A stretch of 64,000 nt of DNA from Acinetobacter populi (GTDB lineage: Bacteria; Pseudomonadota; Gammaproteobacteria; Pseudomonadales; Moraxellaceae): the NCBI RefSeq assembly GCF_002174125.1, contig NZ_NEXX01000001.1, forward strand, positions 186,001 through 250,000. Reading direction: 5' to 3'. Shown here in pieces: positions 5,002 to 15,806 of this stretch. The notes under the pieces are model-generated. The model was not told the origin of the DNA. It saw only the letters and a list, made by a program, of their open reading frames with translations, and ran no database searches. The first letter of the stretch is position 1. Every line of letters begins with the position of its first letter. A program made the position numbers and the translations under genes.

Positions 5002-5236
5002 AAACTTACCTATAAAAGATTTTGACCAGTTACTCAAGCCAACAACCGAATTTAAAATGCCTAGATTAACGGGAGATATGGTATTTGGCAAAACATTGTA
5101 GCGCTAAGACCAACCCGTTCCTATAAAAATAGCGTGTTAAAACTCAGGTGTCAGATTGTGTCGCTTAAATCAAGCCACAATCTATAAAAATCATGCACGA
5201 TTGTCTAAGATCATAAAAAAATGTAGAGCAAAAAAT
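5002..5236. promoter_or_regulatory. Divergent pdxB / cas promoter region with a hairpin element
   Basis: About 235 bases separate the two divergent starts. In the cas leader, AGATTGTG (5153-5160) and CACAATCT (5176-5183) form an 8-bp inverted repeat, continued inward by GCTT/AAGC with a two-base bulge. It lies 54-84 bases upstream of the cas1 ATG. The 7-mer GATTGT recurs at about 5200. It may be an operator for the cas operon or an RNA structure in its leader; no exact promoter is assigned. Confidence 0.45.
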
Positions 5237-6202
5237 ATGGAACAACTTAATCCATCAGATCTAAAAGCAATATTACATTCCAAACGTGCCAATCTTTACT
5301 ATCTTGAACATTGTCGGGTCATGCAAAAAGATGGTCGGGTGTTGTACTTAACCGAAGCGAAAAATGAAAATCAATACTGGAATATTCCGATTGCCAATAC
5401 CACAGTGATTTTACTTGGTACAGGCACCTCGATTACGCAAGCTGCGATGCGTATGTTGTGTAGTGCCGGCGTTTTAGTCGGATTTTGTGGTGGCGGTGGG
5501 ACACCATTATTTAACGGTGCAGAAGTTGAATGGTTAACACCGCAAAGTGAATATCGCCCGACCGAATATGTACAAGGCTGGCTATCGTTCTGGTTTGACG
5601 ATGGCAAAAGACTGGAAGTTGCCAAGCAATTTCAACTGGCACGAATTGAGTTTATCCGTAAAGTGTGGGCAAAAGATCAAGACCTCAAAAATGAAGGTTT
5701 TTATCTGGAGGATCAGGATATACAACAAGCCTTAAATGGTTTTGAAAAGAAAATTCCAATGCAAAATAAAGTTGGTGATTTACTCCTTGCTGAAGCGCAG
5801 ACCACCAAGCAACTTTATAAAATTGCAGCGACACGCTGTAAATTGAGTTTTGAACGAAATCCTGAACAAGGTGATTTAGCCAATGATTTTCTCAATCATG
5901 GTAATTATCTGGCATACGGCTTAGCTGCAACTACGCTTTGGGTGTTAGGCATTCCTCACGGTTTTGCCGTGATGCATGGTAAAACCCGACGGGGTGCATT
6001 GGTGTTTGATGTTGCTGATCTAATCAAAGACGCGGTAATCCTACCCTATGCATTTATCTGTGCAAAAGAAGGCATGTCCGAGCAAGAGTTCCGCCAACAA
6101 GTGCTGCAAAAATTTACTGAACATCGATGTTTGGATTGGATGTTTGATCAGGTAAAAGCGCAAGCTTGCAAAAACTTCTCAAATCAAGGGGATGAATTAT
6201 GA
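5237..6202 (+). CDS. cas1: Type I-F CRISPR-associated endonuclease Cas1
   Basis: 321 residues. Cas1 integrates new spacers into the array as a complex with Cas2, which here is fused to Cas3. I-F Cas1 hallmarks are present: TNAMQ-type N-terminal region (LHSKRANLYYLEHCRVMQKD), a glycine-rich loop (LLGTGTSITQAAM, GFCGGGGTP), and the catalytic region with GNYLAYGLAATTLWVLGIPH, HGKTRRGALVFDVADLIKD, which supplies the metal-binding His and Asp. The ATG at 5237 is used because family members begin MEQL...; an in-frame start at 5156 would add 27 basic residues and disrupt the leader. The stop overlaps the next start by 4 bases (ATGA), so translation is coupled. Confidence 0.96.
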   Translation: MEQLNPSDLKAILHSKRANLYYLEHCRVMQKDGRVLYLTEAKNENQYWNIPIANTTVILLGTGTSITQAAMRMLCSAGVLVGFCGGGGTPLFNGAEVEWLTPQSEYRPTEYVQGWLSFWFDDGKRLEVAKQFQLARIEFIRKVWAKDQDLKNEGFYLEDQDIQQALNGFEKKIPMQNKVGDLLLAEAQTTKQLYKIAATRCKLSFERNPEQGDLANDFLNHGNYLAYGLAATTLWVLGIPHGFAVMHGKTRRGALVFDVADLIKDAVILPYAFICAKEGMSEQEFRQQVLQKFTEHRCLDWMFDQVKAQACKNFSNQGDEL

Positions 6203-9200
6203 TTGTCACGTTCATCTCCCAATGCGAGAAAAAAGCCCTGCCCCGTACTCGTCGTGTGTTAGATGCTTTTGCAGATCGAATTGGTGATAACACTTGGCAA
6301 ACGGTGATCACTGAAGATGGGTTATTGGCAGTAAAACGGTTGTTACGTAAAACTGTTACGAAAAATACTGCTGTTTCATGTCACTGGATACGTAGCCGTC
6401 GTCGCAGCGAACTCATGTGGATTGTTGGTAATCGTAATAAATTTAATTGTGAAGGGATTGTGCCTGTTAACTCAACTCAGAAAAAACTTTCGCAAAATAA
6501 ATGGGAAAACGATTGGCACTATTTGCCTTTGATTAAAGCTTTGGTGGCTATGTCTGCCCTTTTACATGACTGGGGCAAAGCCAGTGTTTTATTTCAGCAG
6601 AAATTAAACGATAACTCCAAAAAAGGAGATCCTCTACGACATGAATGGATTTCATGTTTATTGCTGCATGCCTTAGTTCAACATTCGGGTGATACTAAAA
6701 ACGACCAGACTTGGTTGAATTTACTTATTCAACAAAATTGGGAAGAAGATGCTTTAAAGGCGACGATTACAAAAGGATTAGACCAAACTCATGCCCTAGA
6801 TCAACTTCCACCAATTGCTCAATTGGTTGCATGGCTGATTGTTTCACATCATCGCCTACCAGATTTAAAAAATGAAGATGAAAGGAAACATTATAGTGAT
6901 GAAGAAAAATCTGAACTATCAAGTTTACTAAAAATTATTTCTGCACAATGGGGCTATCAAAATAAGCAAGATGAAACAGATTATCAAAAAAGATTAAAAA
7001 AATGTTTCGAGTTTCAACAAGGTTTACTAAGTCAATCGAGCGAATGGAAAAAACAAACAACGAAATGGGCAAATCGCTTACTACAAGAAACAGATAATGC
7101 TTATCAAACATTACAAGATGGTAGTTGGCGAATCGTTTTGCATCATGCACGCTTATGTTTAATGTTAGGAGACCATTATTATTCCTCTTGTGATGCCGAT
7201 TTAAAATGGAAAACATCATTAACATTAATTGCCAATACAGATTCAAAAACCAGACAGCCGAAACAAAAACTGGATGAGCATCTCGTTCGGGTTAGTGATA
7301 ATGCTTTAAAAGTGTCACAATCATTGAGTCGCTTAGCCGAAGAAATGCAGTCTGCTTACGATTTACAAAAGTTGAAGAAAAAAAGTCCTCAAGAATTTGA
7401 ATGGCAAGATCAAGCCGTCAAAGCAATTCAGCAATTCGATATTAAGAATGAAAATTCGAAAAACCAAGGTTGGTTTATTGTCAATATGGCAAGTACAGGT
7501 AAAGGGAAAACCATTGCCAATGCCAAGATTATGCAGGCCTTATCCGAAGGAGGAAACTCCCTCCGATATATCCTTGCACTTGGCTTAAGAACACTTACCT
7601 TACAAACCGGTGATTCATATACTCATGATATTGGTTTATCCAAGGATGAACTAGCCGTTTTGATTGGCTCTAAAGCCGTACAAGAATTACATCATCAAAA
7701 AACTAACCATAAAGAAGATGAAGACGATAATATCGAAGAACTTGGCTCAGAATCATTAGAAGAATTACTAGACAATGAATTACTCTATGAAGACATGCCA
7801 CAAGCAGAGTTTATGGATGCACTTTTTCCGACAAACCCTTCAATGAAAAGCAAGTCAGAAAAGAATAAAGCATTCTTATATAAACCTGTTTTAGCTTGTA
7901 CCATTGATCACATCATGACAGCAACAGAAACCAAACGTGGTGGAAAATATATTCTGCCAAGTTTACGCCTATCATCTTCTGACTTGGTTATTGATGAAGT
8001 GGATGATTTTAATGGTCAGGATTTAATTGCAATTGCTCGTTTGATTCATTTAACAGGCATGTTGGGACGAAAAGTCATGATTTCGTCAGCCACTATTCCA
8101 CCCGCATTGGCAGAAGGTTTTTTTAATGCTTATCAACATGGATGGCAACTGTATTGTGCATTTAAGAAAATTAAAAATAATGATGTCATCAGTATGTGGG
8201 TGGATGAGTTTAAAACAAAAGTTCAGACTGTTCATTTATCTCGTGATGAACAAATTATTAAGCAATATCAAAATTTTCATTATAGCTTTGTACAAGTACG
8301 TTCAGATTATCTACAAAAACAGATTGTTAAGCATAAAGCCTATATCGTAGAGTGCGAGGATTTGGTGATAGAAAAAACCAAAGATAAATTGGATCAAAGT
8401 ATCCAAAATCAATATTTTGAACGAATAAAACGAGAAGCGGAAACCCTACATCAAGCACATCATACGATTGATCTAAAAACAGGTAAAAAAGTTTCGTTTG
8501 GCGTAATTCGTATTGCCAATATTCCACCTTGCGTCGCGCTCACCCAATATTTACTTAATGCTGAATGGTCAGACAATATCGCGCCTCGTATCATGGCATA
8601 TCACAGTCGACAAGTGTTGTTGCTACGCAGTGAACAAGAGCATCATTTAGATGACGTCCTAAAACGCAAAGAAAAGCAAGGTGAGCAAGCAAAAGCTTTT
8701 TCTGACCTAATAATTCGTCAGCATTTAGACCATACAGATTGTGAAAATATTATTTTTATTCTAGTGGCAACACCTGTGGAGGAAGTCGGACGAGATCATG
8801 ATTTTGATTGGGCGATTATAGAACCATCTTCTTATCGTTCTATTATTCAACTCTCTGGACGAGTTTTACGCCATCGTAAATTAGAACAAAATATTAAACA
8901 ACCGAATATTGCGCTAATGCAATATAACATAAGGGCATTACGCAAAGCTAAAGTTGCCTTTGAAAAACCAGGTTTTGAACAAAATAACCGTTTTAGACTA
9001 GATACAAAGGATTTAAAGCAACTCTTAGACATTACAAATATTGGAAATGGTATTAATGCAATTCCACGTATTCAAACAAATCAACCTTTAGAGTTTAAGA
9101 AAAAATTGGCTGACCTTGAACATGCAGTGACTGCCTATCAATTAACCTCTTATGATAACCATGGTGCTAAATTTCTTAGTGCTTGGCTGAATGAAACATG

Positions 9201-9582
9201 GTATTTGACAGCTTTGTCACAACGTTTTAATCCATTTCGGCAAAGCTCACCTAACATTCAACTTTTTAGAGTTTTTAAAAATCGTAAGCTTACGATGTGT
9301 ATCAAAGATGATTTTGGTGAGTATCTTGATCGAACAAGTTGGTACAGCATTAAAAATTTTGAATTGAATAGGTTGGAAACTGAACGACTTTGGCTAAATC
9401 GTAATTATTACGACATTCTATGTCGTTTAGCTATTGCACGAAATCCTGATATAGATGATATTGATCAAGAGGTTGAAAAATTATCAAAACAATATGGGGA
9501 AATCATGTTGCCAGAATATCTTGAGGGCAAAAACTTAATATATTCGGATCAATTTGGTCTAATAGTTTTGGATAAAGAATAA
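6199..9582 (+). CDS. cas3: Type I-F fused Cas2-Cas3 helicase-nuclease
   Basis: 1127 residues. The domain order is that of I-F Cas2/3: a Cas2-like N-terminus (about 1-95, MIVTFISQCEKKALPRTRR), an HD nuclease with ALLHDWGKASVLFQQKL near residues 117-133 and SHHRLPD further on, then a superfamily 2 helicase with Walker A ASTGKGKTIANAK (about 431-443), a DEVDD box near 596-600, the SSAT motif near 630 and motif VI LSGRVLRHRKLEQN. Cas3 is recruited by the Csy complex and degrades the target strand; the fused Cas2 part joins Cas1 for adaptation. No truncation or frameshift is seen. It lies between cas1 (4-base overlap) and csy1 (15-base gap). Confidence 0.96.
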   Translation: MIVTFISQCEKKALPRTRRVLDAFADRIGDNTWQTVITEDGLLAVKRLLRKTVTKNTAVSCHWIRSRRRSELMWIVGNRNKFNCEGIVPVNSTQKKLSQNKWENDWHYLPLIKALVAMSALLHDWGKASVLFQQKLNDNSKKGDPLRHEWISCLLLHALVQHSGDTKNDQTWLNLLIQQNWEEDALKATITKGLDQTHALDQLPPIAQLVAWLIVSHHRLPDLKNEDERKHYSDEEKSELSSLLKIISAQWGYQNKQDETDYQKRLKKCFEFQQGLLSQSSEWKKQTTKWANRLLQETDNAYQTLQDGSWRIVLHHARLCLMLGDHYYSSCDADLKWKTSLTLIANTDSKTRQPKQKLDEHLVRVSDNALKVSQSLSRLAEEMQSAYDLQKLKKKSPQEFEWQDQAVKAIQQFDIKNENSKNQGWFIVNMASTGKGKTIANAKIMQALSEGGNSLRYILALGLRTLTLQTGDSYTHDIGLSKDELAVLIGSKAVQELHHQKTNHKEDEDDNIEELGSESLEELLDNELLYEDMPQAEFMDALFPTNPSMKSKSEKNKAFLYKPVLACTIDHIMTATETKRGGKYILPSLRLSSSDLVIDEVDDFNGQDLIAIARLIHLTGMLGRKVMISSATIPPALAEGFFNAYQHGWQLYCAFKKIKNNDVISMWVDEFKTKVQTVHLSRDEQIIKQYQNFHYSFVQVRSDYLQKQIVKHKAYIVECEDLVIEKTKDKLDQSIQNQYFERIKREAETLHQAHHTIDLKTGKKVSFGVIRIANIPPCVALTQYLLNAEWSDNIAPRIMAYHSRQVLLLRSEQEHHLDDVLKRKEKQGEQAKAFSDLIIRQHLDHTDCENIIFILVATPVEEVGRDHDFDWAIIEPSSYRSIIQLSGRVLRHRKLEQNIKQPNIALMQYNIRALRKAKVAFEKPGFEQNNRFRLDTKDLKQLLDITNIGNGINAIPRIQTNQPLEFKKKLADLEHAVTAYQLTSYDNHGAKFLSAWLNETWYLTALSQRFNPFRQSSPNIQLFRVFKNRKLTMCIKDDFGEYLDRTSWYSIKNFELNRLETERLWLNRNYYDILCRLAIARNPDIDDIDQEVEKLSKQYGEIMLPEYLEGKNLIYSDQFGLIVLDKE

Positions 9583-9597
9583 TCGAGGAAATTCAGT

Positions 9598-10842
9598 ATG
9601 ACAGAAAATATAAAGATATTTTTAAATGATCGTAAAGTCCTATGGCTCAAAAATCGTTTAAAAAAAGCAAAAGATGATTATGAGATTGCTGATTTACAAC
9701 AGCAAGCAGCAAGCAAATTTAGTCTGGCAGAATGGTTACCTGATGCTGCCAACCGAGTTAAACAACTTTCTATGGTAAGTCATCCGAGTAAATTTAGTCA
9801 TCCTAGTGCTAAAACATCAAGCATTATTGCCAATAGTAAAAAAAGTGGTGATGGTTATTTACGTAGTGGTAATGTGGATTATCCATTGGATGTTTTTGGT
9901 AATGCTGCGGCAATGGACGTATTTAAATTTTTAAGTATCCAATTATCAAATGGCAAAACCCTTTTGGATAATCTAGAACAAAATGATGAAAAATTAAAAA
10001 AAATTATTAGTACTCCAACTGCAAATTTTGAAAATTTACGTTCTGATTTTCTAAAAATCAAAGCTGCTGATACAACATCAAGAACAGATCACTTAATTAA
10101 GCAAGTTTATTTTCCAATTAAAAACAAAGATTACCATTTATTGTCTATTTTAACACCCTCCGGATTAATCACAGAATTAAAACAGCGTATTGATCATCTA
10201 CGTTTCTCCGAACAGACTAAACAAGCCAAAGAGTATCGTAAAAAAAATGAATTAGATGATGTTGGTTATGCTGATATTTATGATTTAACCGTAACCGCTT
10301 TTGGTGGAACACAACCACAAAATGTGAGTGTATTAAATAGCCAAAATGCTGGACGTGCTTATTTGTTATCAAGCTGCCCACCAAAACTAGAAAAGCGTTC
10401 TATTCATTTGCCTAAAACAGATTTTTTTATACAGTGTCTGTATCGTAATAATTTTCAAGAAAGTTTTACTCAATTGCATAAATTTATGCAGATTGAACTA
10501 AATAATAATGATATTCGTGAAGCTATTCGCAACATTATTCACTTTATAATTGATCGCATTTTATTAGAAGCTTTTAAAATTCGTAAGCATTATGAGGAAG
10601 GCTGGTCTAATCAAGACTATTATGAAACTTTACCTAAATTACAACGTATTTGGTTGGACGATGCTTATCAAAATGAACGAGATAATGAATGGCGTAATGA
10701 ACTCGCAAAAGTCATTGCAAGTTGGATTTTAAAAAGTTATGAAAAAGTGATTCAAGATGCCTTTAAACTAGGGGATGGTGAGCTTTTACACGTCAAAACG
10801 GTGGTAAATGAAGCTGTGAAAAAAGATAAGGAGTTTTTTTAA
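9598..10842 (+). CDS. csy1: Type I-F Cascade large subunit Csy1 (Cas8f)
   Basis: 414 residues. Csy1 forms the tail of the Csy surveillance complex with Csy2, holds the crRNA 5' handle and reads the PAM. Recognition rests on the sequence KFSLAEWLPDAANRVKQLSM, SHPSKFSHPSAK and the central NVSVLNSQNAGRAYLLSSCP region, plus its position between cas3 and csy2. A GAGGAA ribosome site precedes the ATG. The N-terminal 60 residues are lysine-rich and probably helical. Its stop and the csy2 start share one base (TAATG). Confidence 0.93.
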   Translation: MTENIKIFLNDRKVLWLKNRLKKAKDDYEIADLQQQAASKFSLAEWLPDAANRVKQLSMVSHPSKFSHPSAKTSSIIANSKKSGDGYLRSGNVDYPLDVFGNAAAMDVFKFLSIQLSNGKTLLDNLEQNDEKLKKIISTPTANFENLRSDFLKIKAADTTSRTDHLIKQVYFPIKNKDYHLLSILTPSGLITELKQRIDHLRFSEQTKQAKEYRKKNELDDVGYADIYDLTVTAFGGTQPQNVSVLNSQNAGRAYLLSSCPPKLEKRSIHLPKTDFFIQCLYRNNFQESFTQLHKFMQIELNNNDIREAIRNIIHFIIDRILLEAFKIRKHYEEGWSNQDYYETLPKLQRIWLDDAYQNERDNEWRNELAKVIASWILKSYEKVIQDAFKLGDGELLHVKTVVNEAVKKDKEFF

Positions 10843-11729
10843 TGCGTCGTTTTATTTTAATTCCTCATCTTAAAATCCATAATGCCAATGCTATGAGCAG
10901 CCCCTTTACCATTGGTTTTCCTGCGATGACAGCTTGGCTAGGTGCCATCCATGCTTTGCAACGTAAGCTACAAGCACTAAATTTTGCTGACATTACTTTA
11001 GATAAAATTGCTGTAAGTTGCCATGAGTTCAATTTGCAAACCTACAAAGGTCATGGTGATTTTGTGTCTTCGATTGTTGGCACAGCAAATCCGTTGGATA
11101 AAGATGGTAATCGCCCTGCTTTTATTGAGGAAGCACGATGTCATTTAGAAGTTTCACTTTTAATTGAATATAAAAATATCAGTCCAGATCAGATTGAACA
11201 ACTTTTACAGACAGTCAAACAACTTGTATTAACAATGAAATTTGCTAGTGGTGATGTACTTTCACTAAAAAACTGCCAAATTCTAAGTTTTGATGAAGAT
11301 GAGGATGAAGATCAAGAACTTAGAAAAATTTCTAATAAACTCATGCTAGGTCATGTTCTTATTGAGCGTCGTGATTTAGTCAAGCATGCAATGGAAAATG
11401 AGCAAAAAGATGCCTTAGATGCTGTATTAGATTATTTAAAAGTAACGCATAACTCAGCACTTGATGAACATGGCAAAGTAGCGTGGTCAAGTAGCCGTAA
11501 AGAAAAAGGTTGGCTTGTACCAATTGCTGTTGGTTTTCAAGGAATTTCTGAACTTGGACAAGCCACAAACCAAAGAGATGCAAATACACCACACCGTTTT
11601 ACTGAAGCCATAATCACACTTGGTGAGTTTGTCATGCCCTATCGTATTGAAAATATTGATCAACTATTATGGCAATATTATGTTGATCTTGATAACAACC
11701 TCTACCTTTGCCAAAACCAATCTATCTAA
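10842..11729 (+). CDS. csy2: Type I-F Cascade subunit Csy2 (Cas5f)
   Basis: 295 residues. Csy2 pairs with Csy1 at the 5' end of the crRNA and is a RAMP-fold Cas5 equivalent. The N-terminus is diagnostic: FILIPHLKIHNANAMSSPFT followed by IGFPAMTAWLGAIHALQRKL matches the family's consensus arrangement. The C-terminal part contains GWLVPIAVGFQGISELGQ and a TEAIITLGEFVMPYRI strand typical of the family. An acidic run (DEDEDEDQE) near residue 155 is unremarkable in place but locally extreme. It is tightly coupled to csy1. Confidence 0.93.
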   Translation: MRRFILIPHLKIHNANAMSSPFTIGFPAMTAWLGAIHALQRKLQALNFADITLDKIAVSCHEFNLQTYKGHGDFVSSIVGTANPLDKDGNRPAFIEEARCHLEVSLLIEYKNISPDQIEQLLQTVKQLVLTMKFASGDVLSLKNCQILSFDEDEDEDQELRKISNKLMLGHVLIERRDLVKHAMENEQKDALDAVLDYLKVTHNSALDEHGKVAWSSSRKEKGWLVPIAVGFQGISELGQATNQRDANTPHRFTEAIITLGEFVMPYRIENIDQLLWQYYVDLDNNLYLCQNQSI

Positions 11730-11752
11730 TTATATATTAAGGAGTTTTAATC

Positions 11753-12769
11753 ATGGCTAAAAAAGAAAATACAATTGCGAGTGTTTTAGCATTTGAAAAA
11801 AAACTAGTACCATCAGATGGTTATTTCTATGGAACTAATTGGGATAATCGCACCGAACAAAGTGCATTAAAACTTATTCCAAAGTCTGTTCGAGGAACAA
11901 TCTCCAATCGTCTAAAACCTGCGGTTGCTGGAGACCCAACAAAATTAAATGCAGAAGTTGAGAAAGCAAATTTACAAACTGTAGATGCTTGTGCTTTAGG
12001 TGAAAATCAAGATACGTTAAAAGTTTCTTTTACATTAAAAGTATTAGGTGGTATAGAAAATCCATCTGCATGTAATAACGAAACATTTTTACAATCCTAC
12101 AATCAAATTGCTAAAAACTATATCTCTACATACGGCTTTACTGAACTGGCAAAACGTTACGCATTAAATATCGCCAATGCTCGTTTCTTATGGCGTAACC
12201 GAGTCGGTGCTGAAAAAGTGGAAGTCATTGTGACATTGACAGGTGAAGAAAAACCGCTTACATTCGATGCCAAGCAATATAAACTCAACGAATTTAATAA
12301 AATTAACGATAATATTCAATTACTTACAGATAAAATAGCACAAGCACTTAAAGGTGAATTACCCTATTTATTGATTAACATTGAAGCTTATGCTCTTGTT
12401 GGCAATGGACAAGAAGTTTATCCAAGTGAAGAACTTGTACTAGATAAAGGCAAAGGTGAAAAAAGCAAAATTCTTTATCACGTCAATGATGTTGCAGCAA
12501 TGCACTCACAAAAGATCGGTAATGCTTTACGTACAATTGATACTTGGTATCCAGAGTTTGATAATAAGCAAATGGCTATAGCCATTGAACCGTATGGAGC
12601 CGTAACTAATTTGGGTAAAGCCTATCGCACACCTAAAGACAAAAAAGATTTCTTTAGTTTATTTGATAAATATGCATTAGGTGAAAGTTTAGAAAATCCT
12701 GAACAAGAACATTATGTGATGGCTGTTCTAGTTCGTGGTGGTGTTTTTGGCCAAAGTGGTAAGGAGTAA
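11753..12769 (+). CDS. csy3: Type I-F Cascade backbone subunit Csy3 (Cas7f)
   Basis: 338 residues, the usual length. Six copies of Csy3 make the helical backbone that holds the spacer part of the crRNA. Family segments seen are VLAFEKKLVPSDGYFYGTNW, a central YALNIANARFLWRNRVGAEK and the C-terminal HYVMAVLVRGGVFGQSGKE. An AAGGAG ribosome site lies 8 bases upstream of the ATG, the strongest in the operon, which fits the high stoichiometry of this subunit. It is followed after 2 bases by csy4. Confidence 0.95.
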   Translation: MAKKENTIASVLAFEKKLVPSDGYFYGTNWDNRTEQSALKLIPKSVRGTISNRLKPAVAGDPTKLNAEVEKANLQTVDACALGENQDTLKVSFTLKVLGGIENPSACNNETFLQSYNQIAKNYISTYGFTELAKRYALNIANARFLWRNRVGAEKVEVIVTLTGEEKPLTFDAKQYKLNEFNKINDNIQLLTDKIAQALKGELPYLLINIEAYALVGNGQEVYPSEELVLDKGKGEKSKILYHVNDVAAMHSQKIGNALRTIDTWYPEFDNKQMAIAIEPYGAVTNLGKAYRTPKDKKDFFSLFDKYALGESLENPEQEHYVMAVLVRGGVFGQSGKE

Positions 12770-12771
12770 TT

Positions 12772-13365
12772 ATGCTCTATTACCAAGAAATCACCCTCAT
12801 TGAGCAAACTGAAATATCTTTATATTTCATCTGGTCCAAACTTTATACTCAACTCCACCTCGCTTTTGTCGAACATAAAGACGAGCAGGAACAGATTCCC
12901 TATGGGGTTTCTTTTCCCCAATATCGGATTAATGAACAAAAACATATTGGTTTTTTAGGTTCAAAAATTCGTATATTTGCTAACTCTGAAAATGAACTGA
13001 TACAGCTTAATCTCAATAAATGGCTTGATCGTTTAACAGATTATGTACATACCACAAGCCCAAGAGAAGTCCCACAAGGGAAAATCACAGGATATGCGTG
13101 TTACTTTAAAGCAAATCCTAAATTGACGATTGAACAACGGATTGTGCATCAGGCAGCTCGAAGGAATATTTCATTAAATGAAGCAGAATCCCATTTTAAA
13201 GATTTAATCCAACAGCCTAATGCTGAACCTTATATCAATTTAAAGAGTTTAAGCCATGATAGAAAGTTTAGACTTTATATCGGGAAAACCCTCGCTGATG
13301 AAGCGAATAATAAAAAATTTGGGACATATGGACTCAGCCGAACAGCGACAGTTCCTGAGTTTTAA
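12772..13365 (+). CDS. csy4: crRNA endoribonuclease Csy4 (Cas6f)
   Basis: 197 residues. Csy4 binds the repeat hairpin of the pre-crRNA, cuts at its 3' base and stays attached as the head of the complex. The catalytic histidine known in the family as His29 is at residue 29 here (YTQLHLAF). The C-terminal glycine-rich end FGTYGLSRTATVPEF is the Cas6f signature. The start follows the csy3 stop by 2 bases with AGGAG upstream. The stop lies 132 bases before the first repeat, so the array directly follows the operon. Confidence 0.95.
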   Translation: MLYYQEITLIEQTEISLYFIWSKLYTQLHLAFVEHKDEQEQIPYGVSFPQYRINEQKHIGFLGSKIRIFANSENELIQLNLNKWLDRLTDYVHTTSPREVPQGKITGYACYFKANPKLTIEQRIVHQAARRNISLNEAESHFKDLIQQPNAEPYINLKSLSHDRKFRLYIGKTLADEANNKKFGTYGLSRTATVPEF

Positions 13366-13497
13366 CCCAATATTTTTTTGATCTCTTTAACAGCTTAATA
13401 AAATCAATAAGTTATAACTTTGCTTAAAACTTTGGGTATTTATTACTTTTTAGAGTTAAAGCACTGTTATAACTTTATTTTTTGCTTTATGATTACA
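13366..13497 (+). promoter_or_regulatory. CRISPR leader
   Basis: These 132 AT-rich bases between csy4 and the first repeat are non-coding and take the leader position. The 11-mer GTTATAACTTT occurs twice, at 13411-13421 and 13466-13476, exactly 55 bases apart. Its arms GTTATAAC are palindromic. They may be protein sites for leader-directed integration or the array promoter. The leader side is assigned because cas genes lie there and the degenerate repeat lies at the opposite end. Confidence 0.6.
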
Positions 13498-15806
13498 GTT
13501 CACGGTGGCATACACCGCTTAGAAAGTGATGACGTTTTGGGATTTAGGTGTTTCGGAGTTCACGGTGGCATACACCGCTTAGAAAAATCAATCCATCAGG
13601 GCTATAACCAAATTTTTGTTCACGGTGGCATACACCGCTTAGAAAAAGCTACCAAAGTTCCAATCGCAAATTCTGTAGTTCACGGTGGCATACACCGCTT
13701 AGAAAATCAACTGGTGACTATGGCGCAGCATCATCAAGTTCACGGTGGCATACACCGCTTAGAAAGGGTGAGCAAGAAATCTATTCTATTGATGAATGTT
13801 CACGGTGGCATACACCGCTTAGAAATAAAGATAACTATTCAGGTTTTCATACAGAGCGTTCACGGTGGCATACACCGCTTAGAAAATTCGGAAAGCATTC
13901 GATGTCCTCGCATACCGGTTCACGGTGGCATACACCGCTTAGAAAAAAAAAATCTTCCTTGGACATTGTTGGCTTTTGTTCACGGTGGCATACACCGCTT
14001 AGAAATTTTTTGCAAGAAGCCAGAAAAAAGAAGAAAGGTTCACGGTGGCATACACCGCTTAGAAATAAAGTGCATTTTTTCATGAAGTTGCCTCGCTGTT
14101 CACGGTGGCATACACCGCTTAGAAAGATGATTGATCCCCATACCTTCATAGTATCTGGTTCACGGTGGCATACACCGCTTAGAAAACAGCATAATTACAG
14201 TTGTTACGATGTGCGAAGTTCACGGTGGCATACACCGCTTAGAAATACATTCAACGTGCTGGCGAACAGCTCACTACGTTCACGGTGGCATACACCGCTT
14301 AGAAATTTTGGCCTAATGATATTGAGCGATTACCAGTGTTCACGGTGGCATACACCGCTTAGAAAATCCAAGTCTACAACGATAGTGTGCACATCTTGTT
14401 CACGGTGGCATACACCGCTTAGAAAATGGTGCGTGCTGTATCTGTTTGCCATAATGCGTTCACGGTGGCATACACCGCTTAGAAAAGTCTTCTAAGCGGC
14501 GTCGCTGTATATACATCGTTCACGGTGGCATACACCGCTTAGAAACTTGATGGACGCATAGGATTGTCGCCAATCTCGTTCACGGTGGCATACACCGCTT
14601 AGAAATTGAACACATTACAGTGATGCGGTTTTGAATAGTTCACGGTGGCATACACCGCTTAGAAATATGCTGCCGACATCGCGGCATGGGAGCAGGCGTT
14701 CACGGTGGCATACACCGCTTAGAAAAGTCTACTTCTGGGTTACCTGTTGGGGTGAATGTTCACGGTGGCATACACCGCTTAGAAATTAAAAGAAAAACAA
14801 CAGATGTCTCTATCAATGTTCACGGTGGCATACACCGCTTAGAAATGTTTTGTCCGCATTTCCGAAAAACGTGTGCGGTTCACGGTGGCATACACCGCTT
14901 AGAAAGATAATAGAGCGTACTGGGGCGGATTGGCACAGTTCACGGTGGCATACACCGCTTAGAAAATACCTGTTAGCGGATAGTTCACGCTCATTTAGTT
15001 CACGGTGGCATACACCGCTTAGAAAATTTCATCAGTCATTAAAGTGTATTGCTGGATGTTCACGGTGGCATACACCGCTTAGAAAACAACATAACTACAG
15101 TTGTTATGATGTGCGAAGTTCACGGTGGCATACACCGTTTAGAAACATCGGGGCAAGTTATACAGATCGAAGTTTAGGTTCACGGTGGCATACACCGCTT
15201 AGAAAACGTCCGCCATTGTCACGCTGCAACACGTCAAGTTCACGGTGGCATACACCGCTTAGAAAGATTGCGTTCGATTAAATGTTTTGCTGAATAAGTT
15301 CACGGTGGCATACACCGCTTAGAAAATCTATATACACGTGCGTATGCGTTGCTATATAGTTCACGGTGGCATACACCGCTTAGAAAAGCTTGAAGCCCCC
15401 ATGCGATACGTGAATTTTGTTCACGGTGGCATACACCGCTTAGAAAATGCCAGCTTATATTTTTTTCTTGACAGTATTGTTCACGGTGGCATACACCGCT
15501 TAGAAACATGCAAAGCCATTGCTTACACTTAAATATGCGTTCACGGTGGCATACACCGCTTAGAAAAAAGATCATAAGCTGTTGCAAAATTTTCTTTGGT
15601 TCACGGTGGCATACACCGCTTAGAAATTCATTGAACCATTTTTGTGCCTTGGTCTGTTGTTCACGGTGGCATACACCGCTTAGAAACTTCACACTATTAA
15701 CAACATGGTTGTATGCCTGTTCACGGTGGCATACACCGCTTAGAAATAAACCATATCGTATTTCGCACAGAATGCCCCGTTCACGGTGGCATACACCGCT
15801 TAGAAA
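13498..15806 (+). CRISPR. Type I-F CRISPR array, 39 repeats and 38 spacers
   Basis: The 28-base repeat begins GTTCA, has the Csy4 hairpin arms CGGTG and CACCG around loop GCATA, and ends with the 8-base handle CTTAGAAA. Repeats start at 13498 and recur every 60 bases to 15298, then at 15359 and every 60 bases to 15779. Spacers are 32 bases except spacer 31 (33 bases, 15326-15358). Thirty-eight repeats are identical; repeat 28 (15118-15145) has one C-to-T change at 15138 next to the hairpin. Spacers 12 (14186-14217) and 27 (15086-15117) differ at only three positions. The high repeat uniformity suggests a functional, recently active array. The hairpin matches the Csy4 encoded upstream in type. 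Spacer targets cannot be named without a search. Confidence 0.99.

What the first reader, a model, noticed from the sequence alone, without database searches (positions are those of the whole stretch)
14186..15117. Two spacers are synonymous variants of the same protein-coding target
Spacer 12 (14186-14217) and spacer 27 (15086-15117) are both 32 bases and differ at positions 4, 10 and 22. All three differences are transitions spaced by multiples of three, and in one frame both encode QHNYSCYDVR with only third-position changes. So two independent acquisitions came from the same coding site, in the same register, from related elements. The difference at position 4 lies in the seed, where an older spacer (27, farther from the leader) would be weakened, so the newer spacer 12 may have restored immunity against a diverged phage or plasmid.
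Basis: partly seen in the sequence, partly recalled or inferred. Interest (0 to 1): 0.62.

Follow-up and report, generated by a model that had tools for sequence, protein, structure and literature searches.

The report
Twin CRISPR spacers from one site
A bacterial CRISPR memory bank holds two almost identical entries that were most likely taken at different times from the same spot in two related invaders; this is a tidy example of a known pattern, and the invader itself could not be found.

Summary
In a type I-F array (38 spacers, window 13498-15806) spacers 12 (14186-14217) and 27 (15086-15117) match at 29 of 32 bases. They differ by transitions at positions 4, 10 and 22, all silent in one open frame (QHNYSCYDVR). 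Chance resemblance is excluded; copying inside the array is unlikely. Two captures of the same PAM-defined site from related elements is the best reading.

The rest is partly supported. No protospacer was found in the collections searched, so donor, gene and PAM remain untested. Silence in some open frame arises in 8-14% of random three-transition changes. One lead favours the frame: two Gordonia phages share a 21-base match (E 0.02) where a small phage gene encodes PGHNYSCYD in that frame, with CC at the PAM place; at 10 or more mismatches over 32 bases it is not the target. Spacer 27 is also near-palindromic, so a non-coding dyad is a rival.

Among 1301 I-F spacers from 17 genomes of the genus, six other near-identical same-register pairs exist; three are silent in one frame. 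A Legionella paper already describes older seed- or PAM-mismatched spacers beside newer perfect ones. Good example, ordinary kind.

The parts
14186..14217 (+). Spacer 12 (newer, closer to the presumed leader); ACAGCATAATTACAGTTGTTACGATGTGCGAA
15086..15117 (+). Spacer 27 (older); ACAACATAACTACAGTTGTTATGATGTGCGAA; differs from spacer 12 at positions 4, 10, 22; near-palindromic over its first 27 bases
13498..15806 (+). Type I-F CRISPR array, 39 repeats of 28 nt (GTTCACGGTGGCATACACCGCTTAGAAA, one with a single substitution), 38 spacers (37 of 32 nt, one of 33)
13366..13497 (+). Presumed leader between csy4 and the first repeat; sets the age order of the spacers
   Evidence: position only; inference
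5156..6202 (+). cas1f
   Evidence: TIGR03637, 473 bits, cut-off 150
6199..9582 (+). cas3f (cas2-3)
   Evidence: TIGR02562, 931 bits, cut-off 566
9598..10842 (+). csy1
   Evidence: TIGR02564, 232 bits, cut-off 169
10842..11729 (+). csy2
   Evidence: TIGR02565, 243 bits, cut-off 154
11753..12769 (+). csy3
   Evidence: TIGR02566, 429 bits, cut-off 158
12772..13365 (+). csy4/cas6f
   Evidence: TIGR02563, 126 bits, cut-off 36
13766..13797 (+). Spacer 5: its relatives lie on the (E/D)QEIYSIDECF codons of Y-family polymerase genes; CC on the 5' side in 8 of 12 loci read

Best explanation
Spacers 12 and 27 are two separate captures, by the same type I-F Cas1/Cas2-3 machinery, of the same 32-bp protospacer from two diverged copies of one gene in related mobile elements. 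The register is identical because the same CC (5' side) PAM fixed it both times (inferred). Spacer 27 came first. Later an element carrying the variant site was met; crRNA 27 would mismatch it at seed position 4 and at 10 and 22, a combination expected to weaken interference but still allow priming, and a spacer matching the variant was added (inferred). Shown: sequence, order in the array, complete cas operon, unlikely to be an array copy. Inferred: source, PAM, priming.
For: 29/32 identity in exact register, far beyond chance; unrelated neighbours; repeat clock against copy-and-mutate; all three differences silent in one open frame, frame weight 95-99.7% under purifying selection; complete I-F cas set above curated cut-offs; 3 of the 6 other near-identical same-register pairs in the survey are also silent in one frame, P about 0.002 (tolerant) under random placement with the finding's own pair left out; Gordonia phages Petito and Perkunas match spacer 27 over bases 4-24 (20 and 21 of 21; E 0.9 and 0.02), the annotated Petito gene 2 reads PGHNYSCYD there in the same frame, CC stands at the PAM place, and the P codon is kept in 6 of 6 relatives read; spacer 5 shows CC on the expected side in 8 of 12 loci. 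Precedent: passages of PMC5071653.
Against: No protospacer found for either spacer, so 'same gene in related elements' rests mainly on the spacers. The Gordonia site has 10 or more mismatches over 32 bases and its host is unrelated; it may be chance. A weaker phage match (Elizabethkingia phage, E 0.9) sits in another frame. Three of six other near-identical pairs are not silent in any open frame. In I-F priming new spacers cluster near the primed site (passages of PMC4117759), but I saw no statement that the primed site itself is taken again. Spacer 27 is near-palindromic, which coding does not predict.
Confidence: 0.75

Rival explanations
1. Repeated capture at a favoured site without any escape: both elements were met independently and the seed difference had no role. 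(Shares the main claim of two captures from one site; differs only on the cause, so its confidence overlaps with the best explanation.)
For: 3 of the 7 same-register pairs are between different genomes, where one array's older spacer cannot have primed the other's. Passage of PMC5071653: two independently acquired I-C spacers hit the same protospacer on one plasmid.
Against: Does not explain why the newer spacer differs from the older at a seed base, although one seed difference in three is not unlikely.
Confidence: 0.35
2. The site is a non-coding, palindromic element (an operator, replication or recombination site) shared by related elements and taken twice. Spacer 27 has 22 of 27 positions matching its own reverse complement (ACAnCATAACnACnGTnGTTATGnTGT).
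For: Palindrome score of spacer 27: 3 of 1301 spacers as extreme, itself included, and 0 of 5000 shuffles; spacer 12: 3.5% of spacers, 4% of shuffles.
Against: Two of the three differences break dyad pairs in spacer 12 (22 versus 18 of 27). Needs the 8-14% coincidence of an all-silent open frame. In the Gordonia phage gene the site is coding and relatives keep the peptide core but not the 21-base DNA core (4 of 6 sequences read). The palindrome was noticed after the fact.
Confidence: 0.08
3. Duplication of spacer 27 inside the array followed by point mutation.
For: Duplicates do occur in the genus: 9 full-length identical pairs within a genome in the survey.
Against: Those copies carry no changes and 7 of 9 are adjacent or in a block; here neighbours differ, and 3 changes in 64 bases against 1 in 1092 repeat bases gives P about 3e-5 (repeats may be younger or under selection, so this is rough).
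Confidence: 0.03

Closest known systems
Overlapping-target spacer pairs in Legionella pneumophila arrays against the element LME-1 (PMC5071653, passages seen)
   Same: Two spacers of one system on the same or overlapping target, older one mismatched in seed or PAM, newer one perfect; read by its authors as possibly primed acquisition.
   Different: There the element and PAM are known and the pairs shown belong to type I-C; here the system is I-F, the register is identical, and the target is unknown.
Primed and interference-driven adaptation of type I-F in Pectobacterium (PMC4117759 and PMC5059440, passages seen)
   Same: Same kind of cas set; new captures come from the targeted element, clustered near the primed site; a GG/CC PAM fixes register.
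   Different: Laboratory plasmids; in the passages seen there was no report of recapture of the primed site itself.
Silent same-site spacer pairs in other genomes of the genus (this study)
   Same: Same-register pairs with only silent differences within whole codons: G145 spacers 5/67, G073-14/G114-185, G094-8/G114-164.
   Different: Two of the three are between genomes. Targets: for G145 5/67 none found in deposited phages or 173 genus genomes; for G114-164 one phage search was empty; G073-14/G114-185 was not searched.

Membership tests
Type I-F CRISPR-Cas locus | cas1, cas2-3 fusion, csy1, csy2, csy3, csy4 in order, each above curated cut-off | tested here: met
   TIGR03637, 02562, 02564, 02565, 02566, 02563 all above cut-off, 5156-13365 + (the Cas2 part of the fusion was not tested apart)
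Type I-F CRISPR-Cas locus | 28-nt repeat ending TTAGAAA with 32-nt spacers | tested here: met
   39 repeats, 37 of 38 spacers 32 nt, one 33
Type I-F CRISPR-Cas locus | CC on the 5' side of the protospacer | tested here: inconclusive
   Seen for spacer 5 relatives in 8 of 12 loci (related sequences, 4-6 mismatches) and at the Gordonia site; not testable for spacers 12 and 27 themselves
Independent same-site acquisition | Near-identical spacers in the same register with unrelated neighbours | tested here: met
Independent same-site acquisition | Each spacer exactly matches its own variant of one target | not testable with these tools
   no protospacer found
Primed (escape-driven) reacquisition | Older spacer mismatched in seed to the element that gave the newer spacer | tested here: inconclusive
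   Position 4 differs and lies in the seed, but the donor element is unknown
Synonymous variants of one coding site | All differences silent in the true reading frame | tested here: inconclusive
   Silent in + frame 1; frame favoured among open frames; a phage gene encodes HNYSCYD in that frame; the donor gene was not found

The most novel reading that the evidence does not exclude
A type I-F system re-takes the very protospacer that an older, seed-mismatched spacer primes from, so that an array keeps successive versions of one coding site; such silent pairs (four of seven same-register pairs in this survey) record codon-level drift of phage or plasmid genes never sequenced, here perhaps a relative of a small Cys/His-rich phage protein with a P-x-H-x-Y-S-C-Y-D core.
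Probability: 0.25. Interest if true: 0.5.

Novelty: new member of a known kind. Interest (0 to 1): 0.23.

Why it matters
It is a clean natural record of one host meeting two versions of the same element. If silent same-site pairs are systematic, spacer pairs could be used to infer reading frame and divergence of unseen phages. As a single case it changes no view of how type I-F immunity works.

Tried and rejected
Target searches with no protospacer found. Fully degenerate QHNYSCYDVR: viral contigs and genome contigs, 0 each. HNYSCYDV in viral contigs, 0. QHNYSCYD in viral contigs gave two related contigs, L012 and L013: 24-26 of 32 bases, TT in place of CC, site antisense in a 138-aa open frame. 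Read as chance: no relative of that protein in deposited phages at E 0.01; 4 of 173 genus genomes with marginal 26% matches that hold nothing spacer-like. Other frames and the 3' half in viral contigs: 0. Core 17-mers in viral contigs gave 17 and 3 loci, none with fewer than 10 mismatches over 32 bases. Core 22-mer in genome contigs: 0. Genus, 175 genomes, up to 3 mismatches: only the array itself. Family, 348 genomes, degenerate with 3 mismatches: 9 genomes matched, one the own array; the other eight loci differ by 10-12 bases from the spacers. Deposited phages and plasmids, each spacer alone: no place covering 80% of the spacer, 155 plasmid records match spacer 27 partly, 20 were listed, and the one read (H33) has 9 mismatches over 32 and no CC. 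Whole array against phages and plasmids: no hit on spacers 12 or 27. The whole-array genus search scored only two candidates a genome and its list was cut, so it is weak evidence of absence.

Petito and Perkunas share the peptide core in frame. The 63-aa protein belongs to phrog_23761, no function known, with a weak second match to phrog_30181, and no Pfam match; tblastn finds it in 76 phage records, 74 of Gordonia (repeated with spread rows). In the own genus it gives only weak matches: protein, 23 of 173 genomes at E 1, best 0.015; phrog_30181, 52 of 173, while 5 of 14 control genomes also ring; none of the 16 loci returned by these two calls holds HNYSCYD with up to two changes. Because of this lead I raised the best explanation from 0.72 to 0.75 and lowered the dyad rival from 0.13 to 0.08. 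Limit: the viral-contig scans required Q before or V after HNYSCYD; the bare core was not scanned there.

Considered and rejected: copying within the array; a conserved RNA hairpin (spacer 27 folds at -7.0 kcal/mol, within the lowest 7% of 1301, but spacer 12 does not keep the stem); self-targeting (no other copy in the own genome at 3 mismatches).

Survey limits: of 66 other genus genomes with some match, I took 20 stretches from 16; long arrays may be cut by the stretch ends. G145b was dropped because it repeats G145a. Opposite-orientation and shifted partial pairs were not counted among the seven same-register pairs. Only the repeat variants I listed, with up to 4 changes, were used for extraction.

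Full report
What is there. Window 5156-13365 holds a complete type I-F cas set on the + strand: Cas1f, Cas3f (Cas2-3), Csy1, Csy2, Csy3 and Csy4, each above its curated cut-off. An array of 39 repeats and 38 spacers follows at 13498-15806. The genome has a second array on another contig with 25 spacers. The leader lies between csy4 and the first repeat by position, so spacer 1 is newest and spacer 27 older than spacer 12 (inference from the usual I-F layout).

The pair. Spacers 12 and 27 are both 32 nt and differ at positions 4, 10 and 22, all transitions. No other pair among the 63 spacers comes near. Chance identity of 29/32 over all pairs is about 2e-9. In + frame 1 both read QHNYSCYDVR. 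This silence is suggestive, not strong by itself: random sets of three transitions in spacer 12 leave some open frame unchanged in 7.9-8.0% (strict) or 14% (tolerant) of trials. If the site is coding and non-silent changes are accepted at 0.05-0.2 of the silent rate, frame + 1 takes 95-99.7% of the weight among the open frames; at 0.5 it takes 69%. The minus-strand frame SHIVTTVIML/SHIITTVVML is the runner-up.

Copy or two captures. A copy within the array should bring its neighbours or lie beside its source, and should be as unchanged as the repeats. Neighbours of the two spacers are unrelated. The repeats of this array show one substitution in 1092 bases; at that rate three or more in 64 bases has P about 3e-5, a rough figure because repeats are renewed at each acquisition and may be under selection. 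In the survey 9 full-length spacer pairs within a genome are identical; 7 of these are adjacent or in blocks, one lies 12 spacers apart in one array, one is between two arrays. The pair is therefore best read as two captures.

Survey. I extracted spacers from the two own arrays and from 20 stretches of 16 other genus genomes chosen from the 66 others that matched the array; after dropping a second copy of one array this gave 1301 spacers from 17 genomes. Same-orientation pairs with at least 31 overlapping bases, shift at most 1 and 1-7 mismatches number seven: within genomes the finding's pair, G145 5/67, G158 29/41 and G114 216/228; between genomes G073-14/G114-185, G094-8/G114-164 and G034-30/G033-5. 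Four of seven are silent in one open frame (P about 0.0003), three of six without the finding's pair (P about 0.002); with the strict count two of six, P about 0.01. Three of seven are not silent in any open frame.

Target. No protospacer found. Searches covered viral contigs (8 scans), genome contigs (2 scans), 175 genus and 348 family genomes, and deposited phages and plasmids. The nearest full-length sequence outside the array is a viral contig at 26 of 32 bases with TT in place of CC, read as chance.

A lead on the frame. Spacer 27 bases 4-24 match Gordonia phage Perkunas at 21 of 21 (E 0.02) and Petito at 20 of 21 (E 0.9); spacer 12 matches Petito at 19 of 20. In Petito the site lies inside annotated gene 2, which reads ...DDPGHNYSCYDAGEDV..., in the same frame as QHNYSCYDVR, and the bases before the 32-mer are CC, the first two of the P codon. 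In Perkunas the annotated gene is in another frame, but tblastn with the Petito protein recovers it at 90.5% identity in the Petito frame. Across six phages read, P, H, S, C, Y and D of the core are kept in all, HNYSCYD whole in two, and the 21-base DNA core in two. This is not the target: 10 to 18 mismatches over 32 bases, an actinobacterial host, and no clear relative in 173 genomes of the own genus. It is a suggestive sign that HNYSCYD is a real phage peptide and that a P codon supplied the CC. It may still be chance: about four such searches were made, and an Elizabethkingia phage match (E 0.9) falls in another frame.

PAM and a parallel in the same array. Spacer 5 matches rumB or Y-family polymerase genes in plasmid records and sites in many genus genomes. 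In 12 loci read, the site encodes (E/D)QEIYSIDECF in an open frame of 430-450 codons, with 4-6 mismatches to the spacer, and CC stands on the 5' side in 8 of 12. The loci are related, so this supports the PAM side without measuring it. It also shows how a conserved coding site differs at silent bases between related genes.

Rival. Spacer 27 matches its own reverse complement at 22 of 27 positions; 3 of 1301 spacers, itself included, score as high and 0 of 5000 shuffles did. Spacer 12 scores 18 of 27 (3.5% of spacers). A palindromic non-coding site is therefore possible, though two of the three differences break the dyad.

How it works, most likely. Seed positions in type I complexes are 1-5 and 7-8, with every sixth base flipped out (passages of PMC5965380; seed also in PMC5071653). 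Spacer 27 against the spacer-12 version would mismatch at seed position 4, and at 10 and 22, none of which is a flipped base. That could weaken interference yet allow priming, which in type I-F brings new spacers clustered near the primed site (passages of PMC4117759; PMC5059440). Whether the primed site itself is often retaken I did not see in those passages. Plain repeat capture at a favoured site explains the data equally well. These two accounts share the main claim (two captures from one site) and differ only in the role of escape, so their confidences overlap.

Known or new. Passages of PMC5071653 describe Legionella arrays with two pairs of spacers on overlapping targets, the older with seed or PAM mismatch and the newer perfect. 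Literature looked at: search listings, and passages of four papers. The case is a new member of a known kind.

Noticed in passing
window 13766-13797 (spacer 5): Relatives of spacer 5 lie on the YSIDE codons (catalytic motif, recalled) of Y-family polymerase genes found on Acinetobacter plasmids, two rumB-bearing records and many genus genomes, with CC on the 5' side in 8 of 12 loci read.
   Followed up: partly
L103 449-640 (Gordonia phage Petito gene 2) and L102 773-961 (Perkunas): Small Cys/His-rich 63-aa phage protein (phrog_23761, function unknown; 76 phage records, 74 of Gordonia) whose core PGHNYSCYD shares frame, DNA and CC place with the spacers; in Perkunas the gene annotated there is in another frame.
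   Followed up: partly
window 15118-15145: The repeat directly after spacer 27 is the only variant one among 39 (C to T just after the hairpin, first base of the next crRNA's 5' handle; handle position recalled).
   Followed up: no
window 15086-15112: Spacer 27 is a near-perfect odd-length palindrome, ACAnCATAACnACnGTnGTTATGnTGT, 3 of 1301 spacers as extreme, itself included.
   Followed up: partly
L011 1772-3299 (second array, G000:C10): Second I-F array with 25 spacers whose repeats mostly carry ACCACTTAG in place of ACCGCTTAG; its last repeat is degenerate; no cas genes were sought beside it.
   Followed up: no
L094/L095 (G145), spacers 2, 5 and 67: Three spacers of one array hit one site: 5 and 67 in the same register with three silent differences, and 2 in the opposite orientation overlapping 5 by 27 bases with no mismatch.
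   Followed up: partly
L088 and L089 (G094 spacer 8, G114 spacer 164): Spacers of two genomes in the same register with seven differences, all silent within whole codons in the frame PPKCDKTDPY; the strongest silent pair of the survey (null 0.0001).
   Followed up: partly
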